Below are positions 9,798 through 36,645 of a DNA stretch of 64,000 nt, piece by piece. The notes under the pieces are model-generated. The model was not told the DNA's origin. It made no database searches and saw only the letters and a list, made by a program, of their open reading frames with translations. A program made the position numbers and the translations under genes. Within the stretch, counting starts at the first letter, position 1; every line of letters begins with the position of its first letter. This DNA is from Shinella sp. SUS2 (GTDB taxonomy: Bacteria; Pseudomonadota; Alphaproteobacteria; Rhizobiales; Rhizobiaceae): contig NZ_KQ410727.1 of assembly GCF_001262505.1 (NCBI RefSeq), positions 62,001 through 126,000 of the forward strand. Direction: 5' to 3'.

Positions 9798-10256
9798 TTA
9801 TTTGCCCGCGTTGTATTTGGCGTCGACGTCGTTGATCGCCTGAACGTTACCGGCCGAGCGGCCGTTTTCGTCAAAGGTCTGCGCGAGGAAGGCGTCGGCG
9901 ATGGCCTTTGCCAGTTCCGAGCCGATGACGCGCGCGCCCATCGTGATGATCTGCGCGTTGTTGGACAGCGCGGCGCGTTCGGCCGAATAGGTGTCGTGCG
10001 TCAGCGCGGCGCGGATGCCCGGCACCTTGTTTGCCGAGATGCACACGCCGATGCCGGTGCCGCAAACAAGGATCGCGCGATCGTATTCGCCGGCGATGAC
10101 GGCGGAGCCGACCCTGTCGGAAAGATTGGCGTAGAAGGCGTCCGGGCCGGCATCGGTGCGCGAGACTTCGTGCACCTCGTGGCGGTCCTTCAGATGATCG
10201 GCGAGAACCTTTGCGAGGCCTTCGCCCGCGCTGTCACCGGCAATGGCGAGTTTCAT
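9798..10256 (-). CDS. eryI: D-erythrulose-4-phosphate isomerase, RpiB family
   Basis: A 152-residue member of the RpiB/LacA sugar-phosphate isomerase family. It has the catalytic cysteine in [14 protein letters not shown] (about residues 64-77) and the HDTYSAERA and [11 protein letters not shown] motifs. In Brucella, the RpiB homologue of the erythritol cluster converts D-erythrulose 4-phosphate to D-erythrose 4-phosphate and was renamed EryI. It is the last gene of the minus-strand operon, 14 bases after eryH. The assignment rests on family plus exact operon order; an ordinary ribose-5-phosphate isomerase B would look similar in isolation. Confidence 0.9.
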
Positions 10257-10270
10257 GGGAGATCTCCTTT

Positions 10271-11035
10271 TCAGATCTTGGCGGCGCAGCGCGCCAGAAT
10301 GTCGAGATAGCCTTCAACCTTCCAGGCTGAGCGGCCGATGAAGAGCCCGTCGATATCGGGGCAGGCGATCAGTTCCTCGCAGTTCTGCGGATTGACCGAA
10401 CCGCCATAGAGGCAGGGAATGCGCCGACCGAGCATGTTTTCCGCAACTTCGGCGATCTCGGCGTGGCGTGCATTGGCGTAGTCGGCGGTGGCCGGGATGC
10501 CCTTTTCGCCGATCGCCCAGACGGGCTCGTAGGCGAGCAGGATTGTTGCCTGCTTCTGCGTAGCGTCGAGCCGCGAGAGCGCGCCGCGCACCTGCTGGGC
10601 AAGCACTTCGGTTGCATGGCCGCCCTCGCGATCGGCGAGTGTTTCGCCGATGCAGATCAGCGGCACGAGACCATGACGCACCGCCGCCTCGGTCTTGAGG
10701 CCGACCGTCTCGTCGGTCTCGCCGAAATGCTCGCGGCGCTCGGAATGGCCGAGTTCGACGAGGTCGAGATTGCAGTCCCTCAGCATGACGGGCGAGATTT
10801 CGCCGGTCCAGGCGCCGTCGTTCGCCCAGTGCATGTTCTGTGCGCCAACCTTCACGGAGGTGTCGGCAAGCAGTGATTTGACCTCGCGCACGGCAGTGAA
10901 GGGCGGGATGACGAAGCGCTGGATGCGGGCATCGCGGTTGCCGTCAGCCGCCTTGAGGCCTTCGGCAAAGAGCTTTGCCTCGGCCAGCGTCTTGTTCATC
11001 TTCCAACTCGTGCCGACCCAGAATTTCCGGCTCAT
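10271..11035 (-). CDS. eryH: L-erythrulose-1-phosphate isomerase, triose-phosphate isomerase family (TpiA2)
   Basis: A 254-residue TIM-barrel protein of normal TpiA length. It shows the lysine motif GTSWKMNKT (about residue 12), the catalytic histidine in ELGHSERR (about 97), the catalytic glutamate in [10 protein letters not shown] (about 170) and the phosphate-binding GGSVNPQN. In Brucella and Rhizobium the TpiA copy in this operon does not serve glycolysis but interconverts L-erythrulose 1-phosphate and D-erythrulose 4-phosphate. AGGAG lies nine bases before the ATG at 11035, which overlaps the stop of the DeoR gene (ATGA), so the two are translationally coupled. Confidence 0.92.
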
Positions 11036-11805
11036 GGCGTTTTCTCCTGTGTGATCCTGACCGTCGTTTTTCCGCCGATGAGTTCCGCGGTTGTGTCGTG
11101 TGGCAGGGGTTTGTCTGAAACGACCGTGTCGAATTCGGAAAGATCGGCGAGCACATGCAGCGCCGTATGGCCGAAGCGACGGCTGTTGATCATCAGGCAT
11201 TTCTGGCGGCTCGCAGCCATCATCGCCCGCTTGGTGCGCACCACCGCCTCGTCCATGTGATAGGCAAGGCGCCCCGACGCCGCCGGCGCGGAGATGAAGG
11301 CGATGTCGGCCCTGAGGCGCGATAGTGCCTCCTCTGTCACGATGCCGGAATAGGCGTTGAATTTTGCGGAATAGACGCCGCCGAGACCGATCAACGTCAC
11401 GCCGGACAGGCCCTTGGCACGCTCCAGGATCGCGGCGTTGTTGGTGATGAGGGTGATCGGCTTCTTCTCGCACAACACGTCGCCGAGCACGGAGGCCATG
11501 GAGCCGTCGTTGATCATGACGGTCATGCCGGGCTCGACCAGTTCGGCGGCTGTTTCGGCGAGTTCCCGCTTGACGTCGGCCTCCTGCAATTCACGGAACC
11601 GGAAATCGCTTTCGAACTGGGTGCCCGCGTCGATCGTTGCGCCGCCGCGCACTTTTCGAAGCACGCCGGCCTTCTCGAGATCGTCGAGGTCGCGGTGGAT
11701 GGTCATCTTGGAGACGCCGAAGCGCGCCGCGATGTCGTCGAGCTCGACGGCCCGACTTTCGACCAGCAGATTGATGATTTCCTGCCTGCGCTCTTCCCGT
11801 TTCAA
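11032..11805 (-). CDS. DeoR family transcriptional regulator of the erythritol operon
   Basis: A 257-residue DeoR/GlpR-type regulator: a helix-turn-helix at about residues 5-55 (RFGVSKMTIHRDLDDLEK) and a sugar-phosphate-sensing DeoRC domain (about 75-235). The same position, between eryD and eryH, is occupied by a DeoR gene in Brucella and rhizobial erythritol clusters. It has its own upstream region with a TATAAT -10 and two direct repeats that probably bind this protein or EryD. A phosphorylated tetrulose is the likely effector, by family analogy. Confidence 0.88.
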   Translation of the reverse strand: MKREERRQEIINLLVESRAVELDDIAARFGVSKMTIHRDLDDLEKAGVLRKVRGGATIDAGTQFESDFRFRELQEADVKRELAETAAELVEPGMTVMINDGSMASVLGDVLCEKKPITLITNNAAILERAKGLSGVTLIGLGGVYSAKFNAYSGIVTEEALSRLRADIAFISAPAASGRLAYHMDEAVVRTKRAMMAASRQKCLMINSRRFGHTALHVLADLSEFDTVVSDKPLPHDTTAELIGGKTTVRITQEKTP

Positions 11806-11828
11806 GGCGTCCTCCGTCGAATGGCGGC

Positions 11829-11859
11829 TTATAACATCGCTTCTTCCGGATTATAACAT
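11829..11859 (-). promoter_or_regulatory. Promoter of the DeoR gene with duplicated TTATAACAT operator motif
   Basis: The 9-base sequence TTATAACAT occurs exactly twice (11829-11837 and 11851-11859), 22 bases apart, about two helical turns. Read on the minus strand, the upstream copy overlaps a perfect TATAAT -10 (11850-11855) facing the deoR gene, while the -35 region is poor. This looks like a regulated promoter with a tandem operator. Related TGTTA/TAACA elements appear in the eryA/transporter intergenic region. Confidence 0.55.
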
Positions 11860-11884
11860 TAAAAATGTGATTTTGAGATTTTTC

Positions 11885-12829
11885 TCATGTTGAGTTTTGC
11901 AGGAGCTGCCGGGCCGTCCGCTCGTCCGTGATGAGCCCATACAGCTTGTGGCTGTAGAGCACGGCGCGGATGGCCTCGGTTTTGACAGGACCGCCGGCGA
12001 TGGCGACGATCCGGTCGCCGCCCGCCTCGGAGAAGGAAGCGGCCAGCGTGCGCGCTGTCACGGCTGTCTCAAGGATGCGGCCCTTGGCGTCGAAGAAATG
12101 GCCTAAAAGTTCGCCGACGCCGCCGAGCGCCGCGATCTCCTCCAGCTCATCCGGCTGCAACATGCCGGATTTGACGAGATGGGCCTGATTGTCGACCGTT
12201 CCGATGCCGACGATTTTCAGATCGGCGCTGCGGGCGAGGTCGAACACCTCGCTGACGCCGCGCTGGGAGAGCAGCACCTCGCGGTCCTCTTCCGTGTTGG
12301 CGAAGAAGGGCACGGGCATCACATAGGCCTGCGTGCCGGTTTTTTCCGCGAGGCGATGCATCACGTCATAGGGATTGGCGGCGTAGTTGCGGGTGAGGCC
12401 GCCGAGCAGCGAGACGAAGCGGGTGCCGCTCGCGCCGATCCGCGGCAGGTGACGGACGGCGGCGGAGAGCGTGCGGCCATGGCCGAGACCGATGACGGCG
12501 GCTTCGCCTCGTTCGATCTCGCGGCGTAGGAAGTTCGCGCCGGCATGGCCGAGCGTCGTCAGCGCCAGCGAATCGTCGTCGATATCGGGCGAGACTTCGC
12601 AGTAATCGAGCCCATAGCGGGTCGAAAGCTCCATCTCCAGATTGGCACATTCGGCGATGTCACCATCGATGCTGACCTTCACCACGCCCTCGGCGACCGC
12701 GCGCGCGATCAGCCGATGCGCCTTGACCGAGGGGATGCCCAGCCGTTTGGCGACGGCGGACTGGGTGAAGCCGCCGACATAGTGCAGCCAGGCGGCGCGG
12801 ACGGCGAGGGAATCTTCATTGTCGGTCAT
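11885..12829 (-). CDS. eryD: Erythritol operon repressor, SorC/DeoR-like sugar-binding family
   Basis: A 314-residue SorC-family regulator. An N-terminal helix-turn-helix (about residues 8-50; GGFTQSAVAKRLGIPSVKAHRL) is followed by a large sugar-binding domain (about 60-310) with the IGLGHGRTLSAAV and IAGGPVKTEAI motifs typical of the family. EryD represses the ery operon in Brucella and is relieved by erythritol. It is the fourth gene of the operon, 73 bases after eryC, in the standard order. Length is normal (about 315). Confidence 0.92.
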   Translation of the reverse strand: MTDNEDSLAVRAAWLHYVGGFTQSAVAKRLGIPSVKAHRLIARAVAEGVVKVSIDGDIAECANLEMELSTRYGLDYCEVSPDIDDDSLALTTLGHAGANFLRREIERGEAAVIGLGHGRTLSAAVRHLPRIGASGTRFVSLLGGLTRNYAANPYDVMHRLAEKTGTQAYVMPVPFFANTEEDREVLLSQRGVSEVFDLARSADLKIVGIGTVDNQAHLVKSGMLQPDELEEIAALGGVGELLGHFFDAKGRILETAVTARTLAASFSEAGGDRIVAIAGGPVKTEAIRAVLYSHKLYGLITDERTARQLLQNST

Positions 12830-12902
12830 CAGCGATGTCCTGTCGTGCCTTGCAACCGGAAGCGGTCTTCAGGCCCAGTCTTAGCAAGCACTTACAAAAT
12901 GG

Positions 12903-13838
12903 TCAGCCCAGCTTGAGGTCCGACGCACCGGTATCGATGTGCGGGGCCCAGAAGGCGATGCTTTCGGCGATCTGCGCAATGACCTCGCGATCGTTCGGCT
13001 CGCGCTCCTTGAAGGAAAGTTCGAGGCAGATTTCGTTGTCGGCGGCCCCGCCGTCCGCGAAGGCTTTCAGCAGCGGTTCGGGCTGGATGCGGCCCTTGGC
13101 ATTGAACTCGGCGGTGAAAGGTCGGTGCCCGCCCTTGTCCATCAGGCTCTGCTTGATGTGGATGATCGGCGACACTTTCGGTACCGCGCGTGCCCAGGCG
13201 TAGGGATTGAAGTCGTCGGGGTTTTCCGAGGTGACGTCGCCGTGGTCGATGTCGGCCATCATCCACATGGGGATCGCCATGTTCGCGGCGGTCAGCCGGT
13301 CCTGCAGCGACAGGCAGGCGTCGATCGTCTCGCCGAATTCGCGGCCGATGCTCATCGGCTCCCAGAAGACATAGGAAAGACCGGCGCGTTTCGCATGCTC
13401 CGCAACTTCGGTCCAACAGTCGATGGCGATCCGGATCAGGTCCTCGCGGCGGACTGGGTCGTCGTAATCCTTGTAGGTGAAAATGGCGAACTGGGTGCCG
13501 ACGGAGGTGCCGCCGAGATCGCCGATAATATCGGCAAAGGTCTTGAACCAGTCGACATAGTAGTGGCGCACATCCGCATCCGGGTGGCCGAAATGGTTGA
13601 GGCGGCCGTAGGGGCCGGTCATGCCCGAGGTGACGCGCACGCCGGTGCGCTCCAGCGCCCGGTCCATCTGCCGCGTCAGCCGGCGGATGGTCGCGGCGTT
13701 CCAGCTCGGATTGATGAATTCATGGGTCAATTGGAGGTCGCGCAGCTTGAGATCGCGCGCGACGGTGTCGATCAGGTCGTCGGGATCGGCGAAACGGTTG
13801 ACCAGCGGATTGGTGTTGAGCGAGAGCGTCAGCGGCAT
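12903..13838 (-). CDS. eryC: D-erythrulose-1-phosphate 3-epimerase (tetrulose-phosphate racemase), AP endonuclease 2/xylose isomerase-like
   Basis: A 311-residue TIM-barrel sugar-phosphate isomerase/epimerase. Metal-binding candidates are visible in VFWEPMS (Glu, about residue 155), MMADIDHGD (Asp/His, about 195) and LELSF (Glu, about 275). EryC was long called a dehydrogenase, but Brucella work showed it is a xylose-isomerase-superfamily enzyme converting D- to L-erythrulose 1-phosphate (L- to D-3-tetrulose 4-phosphate in the older naming). The start ATG at 13838 gives the usual N-terminus PLTLSLNTNPLVNRF; the longer open frame is antisense to eryB. It begins 8 bases after eryB. Confidence 0.93.
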   Translation of the reverse strand: MPLTLSLNTNPLVNRFADPDDLIDTVARDLKLRDLQLTHEFINPSWNAATIRRLTRQMDRALERTGVRVTSGMTGPYGRLNHFGHPDADVRHYYVDWFKTFADIIGDLGGTSVGTQFAIFTYKDYDDPVRREDLIRIAIDCWTEVAEHAKRAGLSYVFWEPMSIGREFGETIDACLSLQDRLTAANMAIPMWMMADIDHGDVTSENPDDFNPYAWARAVPKVSPIIHIKQSLMDKGGHRPFTAEFNAKGRIQPEPLLKAFADGGAADNEICLELSFKEREPNDREVIAQIAESIAFWAPHIDTGASDLKLG

Positions 13839-13846
13839 AACAATCC

Positions 13847-15358
13847 TCAGGCCGCGGCGAGGCGAGCGGCGTTGAACCAGTCGGCGAAGGCCGCGCGTTC
13901 GGCTTCCGTCAGATGCAGGTAGTGTTTGGTGCGGCGGTAGAGGATGTCCTCTGGCGTCTCCGCCCATTCGCTGGCGACGAGATAGCGCGCCTCTGCCTCA
14001 TAAAATTGCCCGCCGAAATGCCGGCCGAGACCGTCGAGGCCGCTCGCGCCGGCGACGACGGCTTTCGTGCGCGTGCCATAGAGGCGGCCGTAGTGGTGCA
14101 CCAGCTTGCGCGGCATCCAGGGATAGGTGTCGCGCAGGCTGTTGGCGAAGGCTTCGTAGTCGGCGTTCGGCATGTCGCCGCCGGGAAGAGGCGCCTTTTC
14201 GGTCCAGTCGCCTCCCATGTTCGGGAAAACATGCTTGAGACGCTGCATGCCGCGTTCGGCAAGCTCGCGGAAGGTGGTGATCTTGCCACCGAAGACGTTC
14301 AGCAGTGGCGCACCGCCGGTCTCGTCGAGGTCGAAGACATAGTCACGCGTGACGGCGGAAGGGTTGCCCTTGCCGTCGTCGAAGAGCGGGCGCACGCCGG
14401 AGAAGGAATGCAGCACATCCTGCCGGCGCAGCTTCTCCTTGAAGTAGCGGTTCACCGCCTTCAGCAGATAGTCGATCTCACCCTCGTCGGCAGAGACATC
14501 CTCTGCGCGGCCCTCGTAGGCGATGTCGGTGGTGCCGATCAGCGCCTTGTCGCCCTCGTAGGGGTTGATGAAGATGACGCGCTTGTCGTGGTTCTGCACG
14601 AGATAGGCATTCGATCCCGCCCAGAATTTGGGCACGATGATGTGGCTGCCCTTGACGAGGCGCACGTTGCGCGTCGAGTTGGAGCCGGCAACGCGGTTGA
14701 TGACGTCTGAAACCCAGGGACCGGCACAATTCACGAGGCATCTGGCGCGGAAGCTGCGGCTTTCGCCGGTCAGGCTGTTCTTTGTCGTGACGATCCAGGC
14801 GCCATTTTCGCGGCGGGCCGAGACGGCGGGCGAGCGGGTCAAGACAACCGCTCCCTTTTCGGCGGCGCCGATGGCGTTGAGGGTGACGAGGCGGGCGTCG
14901 TCCACCCAGCAGTCGGAATATTCGAAGCCGCGGGTGTACTGGTCGAGGATCGGCGTGCCCTCGGGATCGCGTGCGAGGTCGAGCGTGCGTGTTCCCGGCA
15001 GTTTCTTGCGGCCGCCGAGATGATCATAGAGGAAGAGGCCGAGGCGGACGAGCCAGGCGGGGCGATCCTGCGGGCTGTGCGGCAGCACGAAGCGCATCGG
15101 CCAGATGATGTGCGGCGCGGCGTTGAGCAGCACCTCACGCTCGATCAGCGCCTCGCGCACCAGGCGGAACTCGTAATATTCGAGATAGCGCAGGCCACCG
15201 TGCACCAGTTTTCCCGAGCGGGAAGAGGTGCCTTCTGCCAGGTCGTCCTTTTCGCAGAGCACGACCTTCAGCCCGCGGCCGGCCGCATCGCGCGCGATAC
15301 CCGCGCCGTTGATACCGCCGCCGATCACGAAGAGGTCAATAAGCTCAGGCTCGTTCAT
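13847..15358 (-). CDS. eryB: Erythritol phosphate dehydrogenase, GlpD-like flavoprotein
   Basis: A 503-residue FAD-dependent oxidoreductase of the glycerol-3-phosphate dehydrogenase family. The dinucleotide-binding motif DLFVIGGGINGAGIARDAAGRG starts near residue 8, followed by the GTSSRSGKLVHGGLRYLE motif (about 43-60); the C-terminal DAO_C-like domain runs from about residue 385. It oxidises D-erythritol 1-phosphate (L-erythritol 4-phosphate) to D-erythrulose 1-phosphate, passing electrons to the membrane quinone pool by analogy with GlpD. It lies 15 bases after eryA. Operon position separates it from true GlpD. Confidence 0.93.
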   Translation of the reverse strand: MNEPELIDLFVIGGGINGAGIARDAAGRGLKVVLCEKDDLAEGTSSRSGKLVHGGLRYLEYYEFRLVREALIEREVLLNAAPHIIWPMRFVLPHSPQDRPAWLVRLGLFLYDHLGGRKKLPGTRTLDLARDPEGTPILDQYTRGFEYSDCWVDDARLVTLNAIGAAEKGAVVLTRSPAVSARRENGAWIVTTKNSLTGESRSFRARCLVNCAGPWVSDVINRVAGSNSTRNVRLVKGSHIIVPKFWAGSNAYLVQNHDKRVIFINPYEGDKALIGTTDIAYEGRAEDVSADEGEIDYLLKAVNRYFKEKLRRQDVLHSFSGVRPLFDDGKGNPSAVTRDYVFDLDETGGAPLLNVFGGKITTFRELAERGMQRLKHVFPNMGGDWTEKAPLPGGDMPNADYEAFANSLRDTYPWMPRKLVHHYGRLYGTRTKAVVAGASGLDGLGRHFGGQFYEAEARYLVASEWAETPEDILYRRTKHYLHLTEAERAAFADWFNAARLAAA

Positions 15359-15373
15359 CTCAATCTCCTAGCT

Positions 15374-16924: not shown

Positions 16925-17695
16925 GGGAAAGGCCCGCAGCGCCCGCGGTTGCCCGCGTCGTCTCGCCTGATCCGATTGAGAGCATTCGATCCTCCCGACA
17001 GTCTCTCTGGAAATGTGTGTGGGTTCCCAAATCGAATTCTTTCGACTTGCCTCAAGAACCTACCACGGGCCGCCCGAATTTCACACAGGAACATAACACA
17101 AAGTTATCATCTGTCTCGTAAAATTTTTCGAACAACGAATTTTTTTTCAGTTATGATGGGTAGCTATCGGGGAATTCGTTGCGGCTCGCTTTTTATGGGG
17201 CGGCGCTGTCGCGTAGCGTGCTTTTGTTGCCCGAAGGCTGTCGATCGGGCTTCCTTGCTATTCGATAAGTTCCATTTTTCTCGTTTAATATCAATATTTT
17301 AGTTTATTTTCCGATATGCACTGGCGGTGACGGTGATCTGCGATCGTGTGGGTGAGAAGGACGCGTCGATGCCCATTCCTTTGCCGCCGAACTATCGCTC
17401 AGGACCAGGGCTGTACACGATGTTGTTAAAAAACGCCGATTGACAGCCTGTGTTAATTTAACATATATACTGCGACATATAACACGCATATATCGCAATT
17501 GCGAAATTGTGTGCACTGCAGCGCAAGGCAGGTGAGGAGGCCGGGCCGGCGCCGTTCATGGGGAGGACATCGTGACATGTTCTGTTCGAAAGAATTCGAC
17601 CTGCGGCCGCAACGCTTTGGGCTTGTCCCTTTTGCCGTCGCCCTATCGACGTGTCCGCCCGGAAAATCCCTCGTTCAACTGCAAGGCCAACCGAC
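16925..17695. promoter_or_regulatory. Divergent regulatory region between eryA and the erythritol transporter operon (no gene seen)
   Basis: About 770 bases, more A/T-rich than the flanking genes, with no convincing coding sequence on either strand. It holds several palindromes: ATAAC-ACAAA-GTTAT (17093-17107), TGTTAA-T-TTAACA (17451-17463) and TCGCAATTGCGA (17493-17504). TGTTA/TAACA elements recur (also near 17421 and 17478). These are candidate sites for EryD and the DeoR regulators, which would control both divergent transcripts. The region is long enough for a small RNA, but none can be supported. Confidence 0.6.
17440..17469 (+). promoter_or_regulatory. Sigma70-type promoter of the transporter operon with an embedded palindrome
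   Basis: TTGACA (17440-17445) and TATATA (17464-17469) are separated by 18 bases. The spacer ends with the palindrome TGTTAATTTAACA (17451-17463), placed exactly where a repressor would block RNA polymerase. It resembles the TGTTAGAA-TTCTAACA operator of DeoR in E. coli, which fits the two DeoR-family genes nearby. The mRNA leader would be about 220 bases long. Confidence 0.55.
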
Positions 17696-18346
17696 ATGAC
17701 TGACGCTGCGCTCGCAAAATCGCCCCAGCCTGCGAAAAGCTATCGCTGGATCGGTGTCGCCGCCGCCGTCGTGCTGCTCGGCGCCATGGTCTTCGACACG
17801 ACGATCGTGCGCATCGGCTCGGAGGCCGACGTGCAGGTCCAGAAGTTTTCGCCGGAAGCGTATGGCGCGGAACAGTTCCCGCTGATCAAGCAGAGCGTCG
17901 AGACGCGGGCTGTCGACGCCGTCGAGCTGTCGCAGGCGGTCGCCGCGGACAAGAAGGCGGCGGGTGAGAAATACGGCGTCGCCACCTCCGTCGGTCCGGT
18001 CATTCCGGTGAAATTCACCGGCGTCGTCGGCGAGCGCAAGGCGAATTACAACGTCGTCGCGGTCGAGGGGCTGCCCGCCGAATTGACCGTGCGTGTGCAG
18101 ACCGGCCCGGCGCTCAACGGCACGGATCTGCGCGATGCCACCGGCCAGATCGAATTCGGCCAGTTCAAGAACCAGATCGAATACCAGGATGCCGGTTCGG
18201 CCATCAACAACGAGGTCAAGAAGGTCGTGCTGTCGGGCATCGATCCGGCGGCGCTGAGCGGCAAGACGGTCTCGGTGATCGGCGTCATCAAGCTCGTCAA
18301 CCCGAAGAGCTGGATCGTCACCCCGGTGAGGCTCGACGTCCAATGA
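17696..18346 (+). CDS. DUF2291 family protein, membrane-anchored periplasmic accessory of the transporter
   Basis: A 216-residue protein with a single N-terminal hydrophobic segment (about residues 17-35, IGVAAAVVLLGAMVF), no lipobox cysteine, and a periplasmic domain with the DUF2291 stretch IEFGQFKNQIEYQDAG. DUF2291 genes sit next to polyol/sugar ABC transporters in rhizobia, but no biochemical role is known to me. It overlaps the ATPase gene by ATGA. A paralogous gene (27068-27706) occupies the same position in the second transporter of this window, and there it is a lipoprotein. Confidence 0.85.
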   Translation: MTDAALAKSPQPAKSYRWIGVAAAVVLLGAMVFDTTIVRIGSEADVQVQKFSPEAYGAEQFPLIKQSVETRAVDAVELSQAVAADKKAAGEKYGVATSVGPVIPVKFTGVVGERKANYNVVAVEGLPAELTVRVQTGPALNGTDLRDATGQIEFGQFKNQIEYQDAGSAINNEVKKVVLSGIDPAALSGKTVSVIGVIKLVNPKSWIVTPVRLDVQ

Positions 18347-19884: not shown

Positions 19885-19910
19885 AACGAACCCAGCCGGG
19901 TTCATTCTAG
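19881..19910 (+). terminator. Intra-operon hairpin overlapping the end of the ATPase gene
   Basis: A 13-base-pair stem with one mismatch (CTAGAACGAACCC / GGGTTCATTCTAG) and a 4-base loop contains the ATPase stop codon. About 70 noncoding bases follow before the permease gene, with sequence like the short dispersed elements common between rhizobial genes. It may stabilise the upstream message or attenuate. Confidence 0.4.
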
Positions 19911-19982
19911 ATACTTGTTTTACCGCATTCTCCGAGGCCGAGGCGATGCTCCGGCTGGAAATGCTCTAGGAGCGCTGAAGCA

Positions 19983-21023: not shown

Positions 21024-21140
21024 GGAAAGCGGCGACTGACAGGAACTGACTGCGGCTGGGGGAGGCGGACCATCGAAGCCCCGGCAGTGGAAAGTATTGC
21101 CGAAAATCGGCGCAACCGGACTCAACAAGGGAGTGAGACC

Positions 21141-23033: not shown

Positions 23034-23099
23034 GACCTCTTTCTTCTCTCCGGTCGATGTTGCATCCTCGCGGCCCGATTGCCTGCGGAGAGGAAACCC

Positions 23100-25017: not shown

Positions 25018-25046
25018 TTGACATATTATACCAGTTGAGAAATATA
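25018..25046 (+). promoter_or_regulatory. Promoter of the apnO-transporter operon with embedded operator motif
   Basis: TTGACA (25018-25023) is followed 17 bases later by AATATA (25041-25046). The spacer carries ATTATACCAGTTGA at 25025-25038. The identical 14 bases occur in front of the RuBisCO-like gene (34036-34049). Its position between -35 and -10 fits a repressor site, probably for the GntR protein at 33225. Confidence 0.6.
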
Positions 25047-25124
25047 GGATCACGCCGGACGCCCGGTGGAGGAAATTCCGGCTGGAGCCCAAATCTCCGG
25101 CCGCTGCATTCAGGGAGGTCTTCG

Positions 25125-25978: not shown

Positions 25979-26998
<1,020 letters not shown>

Positions 26999-27046: not shown

Positions 27047-27067
27047 CATTCATGACGGAGAATGGGA

Positions 27068-27706: not shown

Positions 27707-27707
27707 G

Positions 27708-30319: not shown

Positions 30320-30321
30320 GC

Positions 30322-31356
30322 ATGGCGCGGTTCAAGGGTGCGTTGATCGGTTGCGGCTTCTTCGCCGTCAACCAGATGCATGGCTGGCGGGACTTGGCCG
30401 ACGTGGACATCGTGGCGATCTGCGACCGCGATCCGGAGCGGCTGCGTATCGTCGGTGACGACTTCGGCGTCGAAAGGCGCTATCAGTCGGCGGGAGCGAT
30501 GTTTGCCGATGGCGGCTTCGATTTCGTTGATATCGCCACGACGGTCGGCAGTCATCGCGCACTGGTCGAGCTTGCCGCAAGCCACTCGATCCCGGCAATC
30601 TGCCAGAAACCGTTCGCGCCGACGCTTGAGGATGCCAAAGCCATGGTCGCCGCCGCGCAGACGGCGGGCATCCCCCTGATGATCCACGAGAATTTTCGCT
30701 GGCAGACGCCTATCTTAGCCGTAAAGGCGGTGCTCGATAGTGGCGCGATCGGTGATCCCTTCTGGGGTCGCGTCTCCTTCCGTTCCGGCTTCGATGTGTT
30801 CTCCGGTCAGCCCTATCTCGCCAAGGGCAATCGCTTCATCATCGAGGACCTCGGCATCCACTCGCTCGACATCGCCCGCTTCCTCTTCGGCGATGCCAGC
30901 CACATGACCGCCCGCACACGCCGCATCAACCCTGACATCGCCGGCGAGGACGTGGCGACGATGCTGCTCGACCATGACAACGGCATCACCTCGATTGTCG
31001 ATGTCAGCTATGCGACGAAGCTGCCGCAGGAACCCTTTCCGGAAACCTTCGTCGAGATCGACGGCAGCAAGGGCACGCTGCGGCTCGGCAAGGACTACAA
31101 GCTCATCGTTCATGGTCCAGATGGCACGACGGACACGGTCGTCGCGCCGAACCTGCTGCCCTGGGCCTCGCGGCCCTGGCACAATATCCAGGAGAGTGTT
31201 GCGCTCATCCAGAAACACTGGATCGAGCGGCTGGCGACGGGACACGAACCGGACACCTCCGGCCACGACAACCTGAAAACCTTTGCCTTGGTGGAGGCTG
31301 CCTATCTCAGTGCCAAGCGCGGCGAGACCGTCGCGCTGGGAGATCTTTTGGGATGA
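30322..31356 (+). CDS. apsD: D-apiose dehydrogenase, Gfo/Idh/MocA family
   Basis: A 344-residue NAD(P)-dependent oxidoreductase. The N-terminal Rossmann fold starts GALIGCGFFAVNQMHGW. The family EKP motif appears as CQKPFAP (about residue 95), and the catalytic region reads IIEDLGIHSLDIARF (about 173-187), with the Asp/His pair expected of the family. In the D-apiose pathway ApsD oxidises D-apiose to the lactone that ApnL opens. It is coupled to the permease upstream and overlaps apnL by ATGA. Specificity is assigned by gene context. Confidence 0.83.
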   Translation: MARFKGALIGCGFFAVNQMHGWRDLADVDIVAICDRDPERLRIVGDDFGVERRYQSAGAMFADGGFDFVDIATTVGSHRALVELAASHSIPAICQKPFAPTLEDAKAMVAAAQTAGIPLMIHENFRWQTPILAVKAVLDSGAIGDPFWGRVSFRSGFDVFSGQPYLAKGNRFIIEDLGIHSLDIARFLFGDASHMTARTRRINPDIAGEDVATMLLDHDNGITSIVDVSYATKLPQEPFPETFVEIDGSKGTLRLGKDYKLIVHGPDGTTDTVVAPNLLPWASRPWHNIQESVALIQKHWIERLATGHEPDTSGHDNLKTFALVEAAYLSAKRGETVALGDLLG

Positions 31357-33221
31357 GCGGGGACCTGCTCCGGCTCTACGGCACAAGCGAGCGCGAGCCG
31401 GAAAGCCGAACGCTTTCGGCCGGTGACCTGAGTGTGGACCTTCAGGACGGCAACCTGCGCACACTGCGGTTTCGTGGCCATGAGGTGCTGCGCGCCATTG
31501 CATTTCTCGTGCGCGACAGGGATTGGGGTACTTGCGGCGCCGCTATCGCCAATCTTGCGCTCGAAGAAACGGCAACGGGTTTTTCTGTTTGCTATGATGC
31601 ACGTTTCAGCGCGCCTTCCGGCGCCAACCTCGACTGCACCATCACGATCACCGGCAACGCCGAGAGCGTGACCTTCTCTGCCGATTGCGTCAGCGATGCG
31701 GATTTTGAAACTGCGCGCGCGGGCTTCGTCGTGCTGCATCCGGTTGTCGGCGTTGCAGGCGAACCGGTCGAGGTGCAGCACAGTGACGGCAGCGTCGAAC
31801 AGGCGCGTTGGCCGGACCGGATAGAGCCCTGGCAGCCCTTCAAGGATATCGCTGCCATTACCCATCACGTTGCCTCCGGTATCGCGGCAACGACGGAATT
31901 CCTGGGCGATGTCTTCGAGATGGAGGACCAGCGCAACTGGACCGACGGCTCCTACAAAACCTATGTGCGGCCGCTGGCGCTGCCCTGGCCCTATCGCGTG
32001 CCGAAGAGCAAACCGTTCAGCCAGCGGGTTTCTGTTGCGATCGAGGCGGATGGGGATGCGGCGCCTGCGGCCGGTGCCGGGGATGCCGTTTCGCTGCTGA
32101 TGGTGCCGACGACATACCGGCTTCCCGAGATCGGCGTCGGACTGAGGCCGGAATGCCTTGCTGGCGAGCGGGCCGCACTCGATGCCTTGAGCGTTGTGGG
32201 CGCCCGGCATTTGATCGCCCATTTCGATCCTGCCGCCGGCCATGGCATCGAAGCGCTGGCTGGCTATGCTGAGATCGCAGCACGGTCCGGCCTGAAGGTG
32301 ACGCTGGAATTTGCCGTGCCGTGCCAACGTCCGCTCAATGATGAAATGTCTGATATCGCGTCACTCGTCGGTAAGGCAGGGCTGGTGCTCGATACGCTGT
32401 TCGTCTGTCCTGCGGTGGACCGGCAGTCGACGCCGCCCGGCAGCGTCTGGCCGGAGTGTCCGCCGCTGGAGGCGGTTTATGCCGCAGCGCGGGCAGCCTT
32501 TCCGGGCGTGCGGCTCGGTGGCGGCATGATGAGTTATTTCACCGAGCTCAACCGTAAGCGTGTGCCGGGCGCGTTGCTGGATTATGTCAGTCATTGCACC
32601 AATCCGATCGTGCACGCGGCCGATGACCTCTCAGTCATGCAGACCTTCGAGGCGCTGCGTTTTGTCACGCGTTCGGTTCGCACGCTCTACGGCGACAAGC
32701 CGTACCGTATCGGCCCTTCGACAATCGCCATGCGGCAAAATCCCTATGGCAGCGCGACGAAGGCCAATCCAGCGGGCGGCCGCATTCCGATGGCCAATGT
32801 GGATCTTCGTCATAACGGGGCGTTCGGTGCAGCCTGGACGCTGGCCTATGCCGCTACGGTTGCCTCGACCGGGCTTGAGGTCCTGACGTTGTCGACGCTG
32901 GCGGGGCCGTTCGGGCTTGTGGCAAGCGAGGGGGAGGCAACGCCCGAAGGGGCGCTTCGGCCGCTCGCCCATGTGCTGGCGCGGCTCGGCAGCCTTTCGG
33001 GTGCGGCGCTGGTCGCCGTCGAGACGTCCCGCCCGGATGCGGTGCTGGGCCTTGCTGCAGAAAGCCGGTTGTTTTTGGCGAACATCACGCGAGAGGCGCA
33101 GGTTGTGGTTCTTCCGGCAATGCCGCGCACGGTTTCGCTGATCGGTGGCGGCGGCGTGGAGATGCCGGCGGCCCAAAGGATCAGCCTGCCGCCCTACGGC
33201 ACGGTCGAGGTCCTGCTGTGA
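31353..33221 (+). CDS. apnL: D-apionate lactonase
   Basis: A 622-residue cytoplasmic protein with no signal peptide. I recognise it mainly from its size and its invariable companionship with apsD, apnO and a RuBisCO-like protein in D-apiose loci. The middle part (about 230-500) looks like a glycosidase-type TIM barrel (for example LKVTLEFAVPC and VRLGGGMMSYFTELNRKR), flanked by beta-rich regions. ApnL opens D-apionolactone to D-apionate. The gene overlaps apsD and is the last of the operon; it ends three bases before the convergent GntR gene with no visible terminator. Which residues are catalytic is not clear to me. Confidence 0.75.
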   Translation: MSGDLLRLYGTSEREPESRTLSAGDLSVDLQDGNLRTLRFRGHEVLRAIAFLVRDRDWGTCGAAIANLALEETATGFSVCYDARFSAPSGANLDCTITITGNAESVTFSADCVSDADFETARAGFVVLHPVVGVAGEPVEVQHSDGSVEQARWPDRIEPWQPFKDIAAITHHVASGIAATTEFLGDVFEMEDQRNWTDGSYKTYVRPLALPWPYRVPKSKPFSQRVSVAIEADGDAAPAAGAGDAVSLLMVPTTYRLPEIGVGLRPECLAGERAALDALSVVGARHLIAHFDPAAGHGIEALAGYAEIAARSGLKVTLEFAVPCQRPLNDEMSDIASLVGKAGLVLDTLFVCPAVDRQSTPPGSVWPECPPLEAVYAAARAAFPGVRLGGGMMSYFTELNRKRVPGALLDYVSHCTNPIVHAADDLSVMQTFEALRFVTRSVRTLYGDKPYRIGPSTIAMRQNPYGSATKANPAGGRIPMANVDLRHNGAFGAAWTLAYAATVASTGLEVLTLSTLAGPFGLVASEGEATPEGALRPLAHVLARLGSLSGAALVAVETSRPDAVLGLAAESRLFLANITREAQVVVLPAMPRTVSLIGGGGVEMPAAQRISLPPYGTVEVLL

Positions 33222-33224
33222 ACC

Positions 33225-33941
33225 TTATTTCTGCCCCTTGAGCGCATAGAGCGCGCGGGAGCGTTCGAGGTGCTTGATCATCGCCTTTTCGGAAAGGTCG
33301 GCGTCACCCTTCTCGATGGCGCGGATGATTTCCTCGTGTTCGGCCAGCGTGAAATTCTCGCGGCCCGTCCAGATGAGCATTTCCGTATGATAGGACTTCA
33401 ACCATCCCAGCATCGCACCGCTGACGGCCGCGAAGATCGGATTGCCGGAGATCCGCGCAATGCATTGGTGGAACTCCATGTCCGCTTCGATGAAGGCATC
33501 CGCATCGCCGAGGCTTTGTTTCTGCGTGTCGAGCAGGGCGCGCAGTTCGGCAATCTGGGTGGGGCTCGCCTTGGTGGCGGCCTCGCGGATCATGCCGCGC
33601 TCGAAGAAGATGCGGGCGCTTTTCAGATGCTCCAGCGTGTCGGAGGAGCCGGAGAGCATGAGTTTTGCCGGCAGGTCGACCTGGCGGATGATGGATTCGG
33701 CGGTGATGCGCAGCACCTTGGCGCGCTCGCCCTGCGAAATCTCCACCAGCCCCTTGCCGGCGAGCGCCTGCATCGCCTCGCGGATGGCCGGGCGGCCGAC
33801 ACCGTAGCGCTCCATCAGCTCGCGTTCGGAGGGCATGTCGTCGCCGGCTTTCAGTTCGCCGGTCTCGATCATGTGCTTCAGCCGGGCGAAGACTTCGTCG
33901 GAGAGTTTCTTGCGGACGATCGGTTCGGAAACGACGTTCAT
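33225..33941 (-). CDS. GntR family (FadR/FCD) regulator of the apiose locus
   Basis: A 238-residue regulator: winged helix at about residues 12-75 (MPSERELMERYGVGRPAIREAMQAL) and FCD ligand domain at about 95-225 with metal-site residues in EFHQCIA and HEEIIRAI. It looks most like NanR/LldR-type repressors that sense sugar acids. It lies between the two plus-strand apiose operons, divergent from the RuBisCO-like gene. The 14-base motif found in both promoters (25025, 34036) is its most likely operator. An apiose-pathway acid or phosphate is a reasonable effector, by inference. Confidence 0.85.
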   Translation of the reverse strand: MNVVSEPIVRKKLSDEVFARLKHMIETGELKAGDDMPSERELMERYGVGRPAIREAMQALAGKGLVEISQGERAKVLRITAESIIRQVDLPAKLMLSGSSDTLEHLKSARIFFERGMIREAATKASPTQIAELRALLDTQKQSLGDADAFIEADMEFHQCIARISGNPIFAAVSGAMLGWLKSYHTEMLIWTGRENFTLAEHEEIIRAIEKGDADLSEKAMIKHLERSRALYALKGQK

Positions 33942-34035
33942 GGGGCACCTGGTTTCGACAGGTTTGAATATGCATCAAGTTTCATTGCCGCAACAGCTTT
34001 CACGAGAAAGTCGGCTTGCAATAACATAAATACTC

Positions 34036-34049
34036 ATTATACCAGTTGA
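34036..34049 (+). promoter_or_regulatory. Shared operator motif in the RuBisCO-like gene promoter
   Basis: ATTATACCAGTTGA, identical to 25025-25038. Here it overlaps a possible -10 (TATACC, 34038-34043) placed 16 bases after TTGCAA (34016-34021). The half-site TACCAG resembles the TGGTA/TACCA arms of FadR-subfamily operators. It lies between the divergent GntR gene and the kinase operon. Confidence 0.6.
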
Positions 34050-34083
34050 TGGATTTTCACAAGCGCGTGCGGGAGGAGAAAAC

Positions 34084-35340
34084 GTGATCCGTCTGACCTA
34101 TCGGATAGAGACGGCGGGTTCGCCCGAGGCCATGGCGGCGAAGATCGCCAGCGACCAGTCGACCGGCACCTTCGTGGCCCTTCCCGGGGAGACGGAGGAG
34201 CTGAAGGCCCGTGTTGCAGCGCGCGTTGCTGCCATTCGCCCCCTGCCGCCCGCCGAGCGGGCCTCCTTTCCGGATGAAGCCGTTGGGGCGCACCTCTTTC
34301 ACCGGGCGGATGTCGATATCGATTTTCCGCTGGATGCTGTCGGGACCGATCTTTCGGCGCTGATGACCATCGCGATCGGCGGTGTGTTCTCCATCAAGGG
34401 TATGACGGGCATCCGCGTCGTCGGCATGAAGCTGCCGCCGGAGTTCGCTGACGCGCATCCCGGCCCGCAATTTGGCGTTTCCGGAAGCTTCGCGCTGACG
34501 GGTGTGAAAGACAGGCCGATCATCGGCACCATCGTCAAGCCGGCACTCGGCCTTCGGCCGCACGAGACGGCCGAGATGGTCGGAGAGTTGATCGCTGCGG
34601 GCGTCGACTTCATCAAGGACGACGAGAAGCTGATGAGCCCGGCCTATTCGCCGCTGAAGGACCGCGTGGCGACGATCATGCCGAGGATCCTCGACCACGA
34701 GCAGAAGACCGGCAAGAAGGTCATGTATGCGTTCGGCATCAGCCACGCCGATCCCGACGAGATGATGCGCAACCATGATCTGGTACTGGCAGCCGGCGGC
34801 AACTGTGCGGTCGTCAACATCAACTCCATCGGCTTCGGCGGCCTTTCCTTTCTGCGCAAGCGCTCGGGTCTCGTGCTGCATGCCCACCGCAACGGGTGGG
34901 ATATCCTGACCCGCCATGCCGGTCTCGGCTTCGAGTTTTCCGTCTGGCAGCAGTTCTGGCGGCTGCTCGGTGTCGACCAGTTCCAGATCAACGGCATCCG
35001 CGTGAAATACTGGGAGCCCGACGAGAGTTTCGTGCGCTCCTACAAGGCCGTCAGCACGCCGCTGTTTTCGACGAAGGACGTGGCGCTCCCGGTCATCGGC
35101 TCCGGCCAGTGGGGCGGGCAGGCGCCGGAAACGATCGCGGCGACGCAGGGTTCGACGGATTTGCTGTACTTGTGCGGCGGTGGCATCGTCAGTCATCCGG
35201 GCGGGCCGGGGGCGGGCGTCAAGGCCATACGGCAGGCCTGGGAAGCGGCCGTCGCGGGCGTGCCGCTCGAAGCCTATGCGAAGGACCATGCGGAACTTGC
35301 GCAGTCCATCGAAAAGTTTGCCGATGGCAAGGGAGCCTAG
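34084..35340 (+). CDS. oiaC: RuBisCO-like protein, probable 3-oxo-isoapionate-4-phosphate decarboxylase
   Basis: A 418-residue protein of the RuBisCO large-subunit superfamily (N-terminal domain about 1-130, C-terminal barrel about 140-415). The carbamylation-site motif KDDE is intact (Lys178, Asp180, Glu181), and the general-base lysine corresponds to Lys152 in GTIVKPALGL. The carboxylase loop-6 GKxEG motif is absent, so it should not fix CO2. RuBisCO-like proteins in D-apiose loci either decarboxylate 3-oxo-isoapionate 4-phosphate to L-erythrulose 1-phosphate (OiaC) or cleave it to glycolate and 3-phosphoglycerate (OiaX). Neighbouring eryH/eryI favour OiaC. The GTG start at 34084 has GGGAGGAG upstream. 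Family certain; subtype inferred. Confidence 0.82.
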   Translation: MIRLTYRIETAGSPEAMAAKIASDQSTGTFVALPGETEELKARVAARVAAIRPLPPAERASFPDEAVGAHLFHRADVDIDFPLDAVGTDLSALMTIAIGGVFSIKGMTGIRVVGMKLPPEFADAHPGPQFGVSGSFALTGVKDRPIIGTIVKPALGLRPHETAEMVGELIAAGVDFIKDDEKLMSPAYSPLKDRVATIMPRILDHEQKTGKKVMYAFGISHADPDEMMRNHDLVLAAGGNCAVVNINSIGFGGLSFLRKRSGLVLHAHRNGWDILTRHAGLGFEFSVWQQFWRLLGVDQFQINGIRVKYWEPDESFVRSYKAVSTPLFSTKDVALPVIGSGQWGGQAPETIAATQGSTDLLYLCGGGIVSHPGGPGAGVKAIRQAWEAAVAGVPLEAYAKDHAELAQSIEKFADGKGA

Positions 35341-35343
35341 ACG

Positions 35344-36645
35344 ATGACGCGTCCCCTGATCAGCTACTACGGCGACGATTTCACCGGCTCGACGGACGTC
35401 ATGGAGGCCCTCGCGTCCAATGGCGTGGAGACCGTGCTTTTCCTCGATGTGCCGGATGCGGACCTCCTGTCGCGGTTTGCCGGTGCGCGGGCCTTCGGCC
35501 TGGCGGGCACCAGCCGCAGCGAGACACCGGGCTGGATGGACGTGCATCTTCGTGCGGCCTTCGGCTGGCTGAAGACGCTCGATGCCGAGCTTTGCCACTA
35601 CAAGATCTGCTCGACCTTCGATTCCGCCCCCCATGTCGGCAACATCGGCCGTGCAATAGAGATCGGCCGTGCCGTCTTCGGCGAGGCGACGGTGCCGCTC
35701 ATCGTCGGTGCGCCGCAGATCCGGCGCTACACGGCCTTTGGCGACCTTTTTGCGGCCTATCAGGGGCGTAACTACCGCATCGATCGCCATCCGGTCATGG
35801 CACGTCACCCGGTGACGCCGATGAACGAGGCCAATCTCCTGTTGCATCTCTCGCGGCAGACGACGCTCTCCTCCACCCTCATCGACATGGTTGCGCTGCT
35901 GGCCGATCAGCAGCCGGAAAACGCCGATATCCTTCTCGTCGACGTGCTCGATGCGGCGACGCAGGTTGCGGCCGGTGCCCTGCTCTGGAACCGGCTGCGG
36001 GAGAGGAGCCGCTTTGTCTGCGGCTCCTCCGGTCTGGAATACGCCCTGATCCCGACATGGCGGGACCAGGGCCTGGTCGGCGAGAAGCCCGCCTTTCCCG
36101 CAGCCGGGCCGGTGGATCGCATCGCTGTCGTTTCGGGCAGCGTCTCGCCCACCACCGAACGGCAGATCCGCCATGCGCTGGAAAACGGCTTTGGTGGCGT
36201 CACGCTCGATCCGCTTGTGCTGTCGGGCGAGAACAACGCGACGGCGGTTGCTGCGGCCGTCGAGGCTGGTCTCAGGATCTTGCAGGAAGGGCGCAGCGTC
36301 GTGCTCTATACCGCGCTCGGGCCTGCGGCGGACCGCGGCGGTGAACTCGATTCTGCGGCAGGCGCCCGTCATCGTCTCGGGCGTGCCTTGGGGCGTATCC
36401 AGTCGGAGATCGTCGCACGTGCCGGTCTTGTTCGCGCGGTCGTCGCCGGTGGCGACACATCAAGCCATGCGCTTGGTGAAATGGGGATCGCGGCACTCAC
36501 GCTGAAAATGCCCTTGCCGCAGACGCCGGGTTCGCCGCTCTGCATTGCCCATGGCGGGGCGGCGGATGGCCTCGAGATCGCGCTGAAGGGCGGGCAGGTT
36601 GGCGGCGACGACTATTTCTCGATGATCCGCGCCGGCCGGGCCTGA
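35344..36645 (+). CDS. oiaK: 3-oxo-isoapionate kinase, DUF1537 (four-carbon acid sugar kinase) family
   Basis: A 433-residue kinase of the DUF1537 family. The N-terminal substrate domain begins LISYYGDDFTGSTDVMEAL, where the Asp-Asp pair is the family hallmark. The C-terminal nucleotide-binding domain contains VVAGGDTSSHAL (about residue 370). Family members phosphorylate tetronates and oxo-tetronates; OiaK makes 3-oxo-isoapionate 4-phosphate, the substrate of the RuBisCO-like protein three bases upstream. Adjacency to that gene and to apsD/apnL/apnO selects OiaK over LtnK/OtnK-type activities. Confidence 0.85.
   Translation: MTRPLISYYGDDFTGSTDVMEALASNGVETVLFLDVPDADLLSRFAGARAFGLAGTSRSETPGWMDVHLRAAFGWLKTLDAELCHYKICSTFDSAPHVGNIGRAIEIGRAVFGEATVPLIVGAPQIRRYTAFGDLFAAYQGRNYRIDRHPVMARHPVTPMNEANLLLHLSRQTTLSSTLIDMVALLADQQPENADILLVDVLDAATQVAAGALLWNRLRERSRFVCGSSGLEYALIPTWRDQGLVGEKPAFPAAGPVDRIAVVSGSVSPTTERQIRHALENGFGGVTLDPLVLSGENNATAVAAAVEAGLRILQEGRSVVLYTALGPAADRGGELDSAAGARHRLGRALGRIQSEIVARAGLVRAVVAGGDTSSHALGEMGIAALTLKMPLPQTPGSPLCIAHGGAADGLEIALKGGQVGGDDYFSMIRAGRA

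What the first reader, a model, noticed from the sequence alone, without database searches (positions are those of the whole stretch)
9798..36645. L-erythrulose 1-phosphate as a shared hub for erythritol, apiose and erythrulose
Erythritol (EryA, B, C) and apiose through an OiaC-type RuBisCO-like decarboxylase both yield L-erythrulose 1-phosphate, and a DAK-family kinase located between the two clusters could form it from L-erythrulose. EryH and EryI, at the far end of the ery operon, then convert it to D-erythrose 4-phosphate. The physical fusion of these clusters suggests one pair of isomerases serves three inputs. I have not seen this island described.
Basis: inference. Interest (0 to 1): 0.85.

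Follow-up and report, generated by a model that had tools for sequence, protein, structure and literature searches.

The report
Shared isomerases for erythritol and apiose
In this soil bacterium (genus Shinella) the genes for eating the sugar alcohol erythritol and the plant sugar apiose lie side by side and appear to feed the same two finishing enzymes, a sharing that related genomes support although it was not tested in living cells here.

Summary
The gene content is confirmed. An ery operon ending in eryH-eryI, an ery-type transporter, a DAK kinase and an apiose/apionate cluster lie contiguously in a Shinella genome. One name is wrong: the RuBisCO-like gene is OiaX (3-oxo-isoapionate-4-phosphate decarboxylase, over its curated cut-off), not OiaC.

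The sharing idea is supported. Of 151 family genomes, 27 carry OiaX; all 27 carry EryI/DerI over cut-off and an EryH-like isomerase, against 18 and 19 of the 124 without OiaX. The three OiaX genomes lacking EryC are the ones with both isomerases in the apiose cluster and no eryABC beside them. In 50 named OiaX genomes, EryC was found in 38 of 38 with no isomerase within 10 kb of OiaX and was missing in 8 of 11 with isomerases there. Fused ery-apiose islands recur with at least four junctions.

This genome has one EryH and one EryI at the thresholds used. The DAK is best read as an L-erythrulose 1-kinase, from context. The reactions are known; the borrowing rule and recurrent fusion are the new part. 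No biochemistry was done.

The parts
9798..10256 (-). [quoted passage not shown]
   Evidence: NF051858 257.9 bits, cut-off 240; only match in the genome at E<=1e-20
10271..11035 (-). [quoted passage not shown] start set at the internal Met before the TIM match
   Evidence: TIM models begin at residues 145-156 of the ORF 10271-11473 in the leading matches, translation, trimmed; only match in the genome at E<=1e-50
11032..11805 (-). deoR1 (eryR candidate), DeoR-type regulator overlapping the start of eryH
   Evidence: DeoR-family matches, all below their cut-offs; beside EryH in many relatives
11851..11873 (-). candidate operator AAATCACA-N7-TGTTATAA in the gap between eryD and deoR1
   Evidence: only site in the window and in the 7.0-Mb genome with up to 2 mismatches; related form in 9 of 25 deoR1 upstream regions, window included
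11885..12829 (-). eryD, sugar-binding transcriptional regulator
   Evidence: DeoR/LsrR-type models, below their cut-offs; annotated in the same position in S. zoogloeoides
12903..13838 (-). eryC, D-erythrulose-1-phosphate 3-epimerase candidate; start set by the length of the S. zoogloeoides gene
   Evidence: TIM barrel protein of 936 bp in S. zoogloeoides; relatives in 36 of 151 genomes; no NCBIfam match
13847..15358 (-). eryB, FAD polyol-phosphate dehydrogenase (GlpD family)
   Evidence: NF009906 877 bits
15374..16924 (-). eryA, erythritol kinase candidate (FGGY family)
   Evidence: FGGY models below their cut-offs; operon context
17651..22088 (+). ery-type transporter: DUF2291 lipoprotein (17651-18346), ATPase (18343-19884), permease (19983-21023), SBP (21087-22088)
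22179..23033 (+). deoR2, DeoR-type regulator
23079..24800 (+). DAK-family kinase, L-erythrulose 1-kinase (lerK) candidate
   Evidence: Dak1 and Dak2 domains, PRK14479 742 bits; orthologues next to EryH-EryI or an XI-family protein
25035..25952 (+). apnO candidate, D-apionate oxidoisomerase (PGDH_C)
   Evidence: PF16896 252.6 bits; PDB 5t57 461.9 bits; homologue near OiaX in 24 of 26 family genomes and 71 of 80 named loci
25985..26998 (+). apiose-type ABC solute-binding protein
   Evidence: PDB 5ibq and 4ry0, 538 bits
27068..31356 (+). DUF2291 lipoprotein (27068-27706, read by eye), ATPase (27708-29252), permease (29249-30319), Gfo/Idh dehydrogenase, D-apiose dehydrogenase candidate (30316-31356)
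   Evidence: same order annotated
31353..33221 (+). apnL, D-apionate lactonase
   Evidence: NF049900 816.7 bits, cut-off 750
33225..33941 (-). GntR/NanR-type regulator
   Evidence: NF003011 348 bits, cut-off 260
34084..35340 (+). oiaX, 3-oxo-isoapionate-4-phosphate decarboxylase (RuBisCO-like)
   Evidence: NF042437 779.8 bits, cut-off 700
35344..36645 (+). oiaK candidate, 3-oxo-isoapionate kinase
   Evidence: NF042436 448.2 bits, below cut-off 700; SBD_N and NBD_C domains
36653..38182 (-). AraC-type regulator at the edge of the island

Best explanation
The island is a set of catabolic branches that meet at L-erythrulose 1-phosphate. Branch 1: erythritol is phosphorylated by EryA, oxidised by EryB and epimerised by EryC to L-erythrulose 1-phosphate. 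Branch 2: apiose is imported, oxidised (Gfo/Idh), hydrolysed by ApnL, rearranged by ApnO, phosphorylated by OiaK and decarboxylated by OiaX, also to L-erythrulose 1-phosphate. Branch 3 (less certain): the DAK, a LerK candidate, phosphorylates L-erythrulose. All three are then isomerised by the same pair, EryH and EryI, to D-erythrose 4-phosphate. The pair lies with the regulator deoR1 in a compact unit that has its own candidate operator, so it could be expressed without eryABC. Shown here: gene content, single copy of the pair, co-occurrence and context rules. Inferred: every reaction in this organism, and the regulation.
For: Curated-model matches over cut-off for OiaX, ApnL and EryI. One EryI (E<=1e-20) and one EryH (E<=1e-50) in the genome. 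OiaX with EryI 27 of 27 against 18 of 124, p=3e-18; with EryH 27 of 27 against 19 of 124 (relatedness not corrected). Of 42 genomes holding OiaX, EryC or a DAK of at least 60% identity, EryH is in 42 and EryI over cut-off in 40; outside these, EryI is in 5 of 109. The 3 OiaX genomes without EryC are the ones with both isomerases in the apiose cluster and no eryABC beside them. Named genomes: EryC in 38 of 38 with no isomerase within 10 kb of OiaX, missing in 8 of 11 with isomerases there, p=4e-7; EryI in 49 of 50. For the DAK, its 3 EryC-less genomes have EryH-EryI directly next to it, and a DAK-family homologue, mostly a distant one, lies at the apiose-ery junction in 12 of 13 fused named loci. 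Literature: order of EryC, LerI and DerI and in-vivo function of LerK, LerI and DerI in E. coli (PMC10733421, passages); eryA, B, C, H and I gave E. coli growth on erythritol (PMC10190533, passages).
Against: No enzyme or mutant data. OiaK scores 448 against a 700-bit cut-off. EryC and EryH rest on operon position and co-occurrence, not on an equivalog model for these activities. Genomes are related, so counts overstate independence: G029 and G128 are one genus, and the 8 EryC-less named genomes fall in two EryH lineages. Three of 11 clusters with local isomerases also have EryC. G083 has OiaX beside its ery genes but no ApnO, OiaK, ApnL or dehydrogenase homologue in the stretch fetched, so OiaX does not always come with its pathway. 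The deoR1 operator was not found near the DAK, apnO or oiaX, so no shared regulator was detected. No L-erythrulose transporter was identified. Five genomes have EryI with none of the three inputs.
Confidence: 0.85

Rival explanations
1. The RuBisCO-like protein is a transcarboxylase/hydrolase giving 3-phosphoglycerate and glycolate, so apiose never needs the isomerases and the two clusters are neighbours by accident.
For: The RuBisCO-like family is known to contain a transcarboxylase/hydrolase (PMC6302742 passage citing Carter 2018; its products are recalled). A sister RuBisCO-like protein with its own OiaK-like kinase exists in this genome.
Against: OiaX model over cut-off. Isomerases co-occur with OiaX in 27 of 27 genomes, but EryI over cut-off is in 1 of 17 genomes that hold the sister protein without OiaX. 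Isomerases sit in OiaX clusters of genomes where EryC is missing.
Confidence: 0.05
2. L-erythrulose 1-phosphate made from apiose is cleaved by an aldolase to dihydroxyacetone phosphate and formaldehyde, not isomerised.
For: Cleavage of erythrulose 1-phosphate has been suggested for erythritol catabolism in Sinorhizobium meliloti (PMC10733421 discussion passage).
Against: No aldolase gene was recognised among the island proteins scanned. It does not explain why OiaX came with EryH and EryI in all 27 genomes.
Confidence: 0.04
3. Sharing is real but the DAK is a dihydroxyacetone or D-erythrulose kinase, so there are only two inputs in this island.
For: DAK proteins are a broad family. The only curated cut-off passed is a subfamily model and the nearest solved structures are dihydroxyacetone kinases. 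In two Shinella relatives the DAK follows an FGGY kinase and a GlpD-type enzyme, so it may belong to another polyol route. Fourteen DAK rows of 60-74% identity (L044, L203, L205-L215 and L072, the last from G075) have no isomerase within 6 kb in the stretches read.
Against: Orthologues at 67-75% identity lie directly next to EryH-EryI in G015, G067, G045 and G138. All 19 genomes with a DAK of at least 60% have EryH. In G045 and in this genome's own paralogue the gene follows an XI-family protein.
Confidence: 0.25
4. The fusion is only transfer hitch-hiking of two catabolic islands on plasmids, with no metabolic reason.
For: OiaX and ery loci occur on plasmids, and 54 of 80 named OiaX loci have no isomerase within 10 kb.
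Against: Different junctions join the same two pathways. The dependence on EryC points to a functional link even when the loci are apart.
Confidence: 0.1

Closest known systems
D-apionate degradation by the RuBisCO-like decarboxylase (OiaX), Carter et al. 2018 Nat Chem Biol (paper not held; known from a PMC6302742 passage, the NCBIfam model and recall)
   Same: ApnL and OiaX over curated cut-offs; ApnO, OiaK and SBP relatives; product L-erythrulose 1-phosphate (recalled from enzyme nomenclature)
   Different: Here the downstream isomerases appear to be supplied by the neighbouring ery operon. I could not read whether the original paper comments on this.
Brucella / Ochrobactrum / R. leguminosarum-type ery locus (eryEFG, eryABCD, eryR, tpiB=eryH), Geddes 2013 PMC3599248 (abstract and first part of Results read); rpiB=eryI is recalled and named in PMC10190533
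   Same: Same gene set and divergent arrangement
   Different: Carries a DAK and an apiose cluster beyond the transporter; the parts of the 2013 survey that I read do not mention apiose
LerK-LerI-DerI tetritol module of Mycobacterium smegmatis (described in passages of PMC10733421 and PMC12780249; the gene names for that organism are recalled)
   Same: Kinase to L-erythrulose 1-phosphate followed by two isomerases
   Different: No tetritol dehydrogenase was recognised among the island proteins scanned; kinase identity is inferred from context
OiaC (xylose-isomerase-family) apionate route with LerK (recalled)
   Same: This genome has a separate PdxA-TctC-TctA-XI family-DAK cluster on C16 whose DAK is 74% identical to the window DAK
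   Different: Not in the window; the XI-family protein has no NCBIfam match at E<=1e-10, so OiaC is a position-based guess

Membership tests
3-oxo-isoapionate-4-phosphate decarboxylase OiaX | NF042437 curated score over 700 | tested here: met
   779.8 bits
3-oxo-isoapionate-4-phosphate decarboxylase OiaX | Conserved active-site lysines and KDDE metal motif | tested here: met
   K151, K177, D178, D179, E180 invariant in 27 sequences; their role is recalled from RuBisCO
3-oxo-isoapionate-4-phosphate decarboxylase OiaX | Releases CO2 and L-erythrulose 1-phosphate | not testable with these tools
   needs enzyme assay
D-apionate lactonase ApnL | NF049900 curated score over 750 | tested here: met
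   816.7 bits
3-oxo-isoapionate kinase OiaK | NF042436 curated score over 700 | tested here: not met
   448.2 bits; best hit and next to oiaX, so it may work like OiaK but is not filed as a certain member
D-apionate oxidoisomerase ApnO | curated family model | tested here: inconclusive
   no ApnO model matched; PF16896 and PDB 5t57 matches; homologue near OiaX in 24 of 26 family genomes and 71 of 80 named loci
D-erythrulose-4-phosphate isomerase EryI/DerI | NF051858 curated score over 240 | tested here: met
   257.9 bits
L-erythrulose-1-phosphate isomerase EryH/LerI | TIM family plus linkage to DerI | tested here: met
   TIM-family match; the model passed is the general triose-phosphate isomerase one; adjacent to eryI; 42 of 42 genomes with an input have a relative. 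Activity not tested
[quoted passage not shown]
   no match, 12.1 bits to D-psicose 3-epimerase; placed by operon order
L-erythrulose 1-kinase LerK | DAK family with L-erythrulose activity | tested here: inconclusive
   family met; context supports; activity not testable
   the window protein is RuBisCO-like (PF00016)

The most novel reading that the evidence does not exclude
deoR1-eryH-eryI is a self-regulated, portable 'tetrulose phosphate' module whose regulator answers to a hub metabolite such as L-erythrulose 1-phosphate rather than to any one food source. Erythritol, apiose through OiaX, and the Tct/XI-family/LerK route all plug into it. Selection for this sharing has fused ery and apiose loci several separate times in Rhizobiaceae, usually with a DAK-family kinase at the junction, and apiose clusters pick up their own isomerases when the erythritol pathway is absent.
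Probability: 0.45. Interest if true: 0.62.

Novelty: new variant of a known kind. Interest (0 to 1): 0.52.

Why it matters
It gives a simple genomic rule: in the genomes tested, an apiose (OiaX) cluster without isomerases went with an erythritol pathway elsewhere. The rule predicts that nutrients usually annotated apart depend on each other. It makes automatic pathway calls safer, since an apiose cluster that looks incomplete need not be broken. It also names a candidate for the tetrose-specific kinases that a 2025 study of tetrose-eating bacteria calls unreported (PMC12780249, discussion section), although an L-erythrulose 1-kinase (LerK) is already in use in engineered E. coli (PMC10733421, passages).

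Tried and rejected
The + strand ORF 33270-34049 between apnL and oiaX was considered as an unknown gene. It has no family match, and the - strand ORF 33225-33941 is a NanR-type GntR regulator, so the + ORF is taken as a shadow frame.

A shared operator joining deoR1 with the DAK, apnO or oiaX was looked for and not found. The operator form TCACA-N5-8-TGTTA (or its reverse) is present in 9 of 25 deoR1 upstream regions only; others show similar half-sites with other spacing by eye, which I did not model.

The DAK tree has very long branches for some rows and does not cleanly separate isomerase-linked DAKs from the others, so it is not used as proof of function. In the EryH tree some context labels are wrong because stretches were split or fetched apart (G075, G050 and G083 are not labelled fused), so its count of changes is a rough guide.

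Carter 2018 could not be read; its reactions are recalled or taken from the PMC6302742 passage. Literature searches of the open-access library for apiose, RuBisCO-like, isomerase and erythrulose together (0 papers), apionate with RuBisCO-like (0 papers), apiose with catabolic pathway and transport, apiose with erythritol, rhizobia and erythrose 4-phosphate, oiaX/oiaC/apionate terms (15 of 47 papers listed) and erythrulose 1-phosphate listed no paper that, by title and abstract start, describes this fusion. Subscription papers were not searched.


Full report
What is in the window. The window belongs to a 7.0-Mb genome of the genus Shinella: the ten Shinella loci among the 80 found have OiaX 89-94% identical to the window's, the best match being S. 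yambaruensis, and the ery operon is 83-88% identical to Shinella plasmids. From 9798 to 16924, on the minus strand, lie eryI, eryH, a DeoR regulator (deoR1), eryD, eryC, eryB and eryA. Divergent from eryA come a DUF2291 lipoprotein and an ABC transporter, then a DeoR regulator (deoR2), a DAK kinase, an apnO candidate, a second transporter, a Gfo/Idh dehydrogenase, apnL, a GntR regulator on the minus strand, oiaX and an oiaK candidate. A deposited S. zoogloeoides plasmid carries the same order, with oiaX annotated. That plasmid and G075 have an FGGY kinase and a GlpD-type enzyme between deoR2 and the DAK, which the window lacks.

Names. The RuBisCO-like protein passes the curated OiaX (3-oxo-isoapionate-4-phosphate decarboxylase) cut-off, 779.8 over 700. 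OiaC is, as I recall, a different, xylose-isomerase-type decarboxylase. The kinase next to it is only OiaK-like by score (448, cut-off 700). EryC has no NCBIfam match. The apiose solute-binding protein matches PDB 5ibq and 4ry0 at 538 bits; that 5ibq holds apiose is recalled. The apnO candidate matches PDB 5t57 at 462 bits.

Reaction logic. EryC converts D- to L-erythrulose 1-phosphate, and LerI (here EryH) and DerI (here EryI) turn that into D-erythrose 4-phosphate (PMC10733421, passages; the equation of EryH with LerI is recalled, that of EryI with DerI is in the NCBIfam name). That OiaX makes L-erythrulose 1-phosphate is recalled from enzyme nomenclature. [quoted passage not shown] I read the first activity as K84's from the word order.

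Test 1, co-occurrence. In 151 genomes of the family, OiaX over cut-off is in 27, EryI over cut-off in 45, EryH-like at E<=1e-50 in 46, EryC at E<=1e-60 in 36, and a DAK of at least 60% identity in 19, one of them a partial match. OiaX with EryI: 27 of 27 against 18 of 124. OiaX with EryH: 27 of 27 against 19 of 124. OiaX with EryC: 24 of 27 against 12 of 124. In three OiaX genomes the EryH-like protein is only 49-56% identical (G042, G079, G088). Seventeen genomes hold a sister RuBisCO-like protein (380-480 bits) without OiaX; 1 of 17 has EryI over cut-off, and three more have weak matches of 119-127 bits (G024, G070, G125). Of 42 genomes with OiaX, EryC or the DAK, EryH is in 42 and EryI over cut-off in 40; the other two, G116 and G002, have EryI matches below it (203 and 147 bits). 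Outside these 42, EryI is in 5 of 109. The Fisher values ignore relatedness; the 27 OiaX genomes cover 23 genera.

Test 2, natural knock-outs. The three OiaX genomes without EryC (G029, G038, G128; two genera) carry eryH and eryI within or at the edge of the apiose cluster with no eryABC beside them. In 80 named OiaX loci with up to 10-kb flanks, 13 are fused with ery genes, 13 have isomerases without eryABC, and 54 have neither. The last class hides some islands longer than the flank: L122, L123, L126 and L137 (Shinella) have the window's DAK-apnO order. I searched 50 of these 80 genomes for EryC: 11 of the 13 with isomerases and 39 of the 54, one of which, L189, is a contig-end case with a partial EryH that I count apart. 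EryC was missing in 8 of 11 and present in 38 of 38 and in L189 (Fisher 4e-7). EryI over cut-off was found in 49 of 50, the miss being L189's genome, where the contig with the ery genes begins at eryD. Of the 38, 36 have one EryI match at E<=1e-50. Against a strict rule: L146, L147 and L148 have local isomerases and also EryC.

Test 3, recurrence of the fusion. Four junctions are seen: Shinella (ery transporter, deoR2, DAK, apnO); Rhizobium-type (eryI end to gntR/oiaX: L142, L159, L166, L180, L190, and G050); Mesorhizobium-type (oiaK, a DAK homologue, then eryI: L169, L176, L178, L193, L195, L196, L197); and a MAG (L134: oiaK, a 70% DAK, eryI). G083 is a possible fifth, but there no ApnO, OiaK, ApnL or dehydrogenase homologue was found in the fetched stretch. 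In 12 of the 13 fused named loci (all but L180) a DAK-family homologue lies at the junction: 70% in L134, and 36-43% in its best segment in the other 11. In the EryH tree the apiose-embedded and fused labels need at least 4 and 5 changes on supported branches, with the label errors told under Tried and rejected.

The DAK. Orthologues of 67-75% identity lie next to EryH-EryI in G015, G067, G045 and G138, and a 70% one in L134. In G045 the order is PdxA-like, TctC, TctA, XI-family protein, DAK, EryH, EryI. This genome has the same PdxA-TctC-TctA-XI-DAK group on contig C16, its DAK 74% identical to the window's, and one match to that XI-family protein. Against this, the DAKs of 60-74% in L044, L203 and L205-L215 have no isomerase within 6 kb. 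The three DAK genomes without EryC (G045, G067, G138; two genera) are those with EryH-EryI beside the DAK and no ery genes there; the other 16 have EryC. So I read the DAK as a LerK. What makes L-erythrulose in this island is not known. One guess is loss of CO2 from unphosphorylated 3-oxo-isoapionate, a beta-keto acid, which would make the DAK a salvage kinase.

Regulation. deoR1 overlaps the start of eryH, and eryI follows eryH by 14 bases. In the gap between eryD and deoR1 is AAATCACA-N7-TGTTATAA (11851-11873, minus strand), the only such site in the window and in the genome with up to 2 mismatches. A looser form is in 9 of 25 deoR1 upstream regions (window included), with a shuffled mean of 0.03, while the 3.37 Mb of fetched stretches, some overlapping, hold 11 matches in all. 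None of 32 EryH genes without deoR1 has it in the 171 bases upstream. This suggests a separately regulated isomerase unit but not a shared regulon with apiose.

Verdict. The reactions are known; the borrowing rule and repeated fusion are new as far as the searches can show.

Noticed in passing
G000:C33:27531-28760 (locus L115:12284-13570): A second RuBisCO-like protein (477.7 bits to OiaX, cut-off 700) lies in a cluster with OiaK-like, ApnL-like and ApnO-like genes: a possible second branched-sugar-acid pathway of unknown substrate.
   Followed up: partly
G000:C16, 14000-33000 (locus L203): PdxA-like, TctC, TctA, xylose-isomerase-family protein and a DAK 74% identical to the window DAK form a likely fourth branch that would also need the window's isomerases.
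   Followed up: partly
window 22179-24800 against L202 and G075: Two relatives have an FGGY kinase and a GlpD-type enzyme between deoR2 and the DAK; the window lacks them and deoR2 lies 45 bases from the DAK frame.
   Followed up: no
L142, L159, L166, L190 and L169, L171, L176, L178, L193-L197: A different DAK subfamily (36-43% identical in its best segment) sits at the junction between the apiose and ery genes, perhaps an independent tetrulose kinase.
   Followed up: partly
G145:C6:195407-195835: This apiose cluster carries its own eryI but no eryH was found there, while an ery operon with both lies about 200 kb away on the same contig, so only one of the two isomerases is duplicated.
   Followed up: no
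G020, G036, G052, G089, G134: EryI is present over cut-off without EryC, OiaX or a DAK of at least 60% at the thresholds used, suggesting yet another input to the isomerases.
   Followed up: no
G083:C22:235134-242000: OiaX lies beside ery genes but no other apiose-pathway homologue was found in the fetched stretch.
   Followed up: no
window 9028-9744: An Asp/Glu/hydantoin racemase follows a branched-chain amino acid type transporter just outside the island.
   Followed up: no
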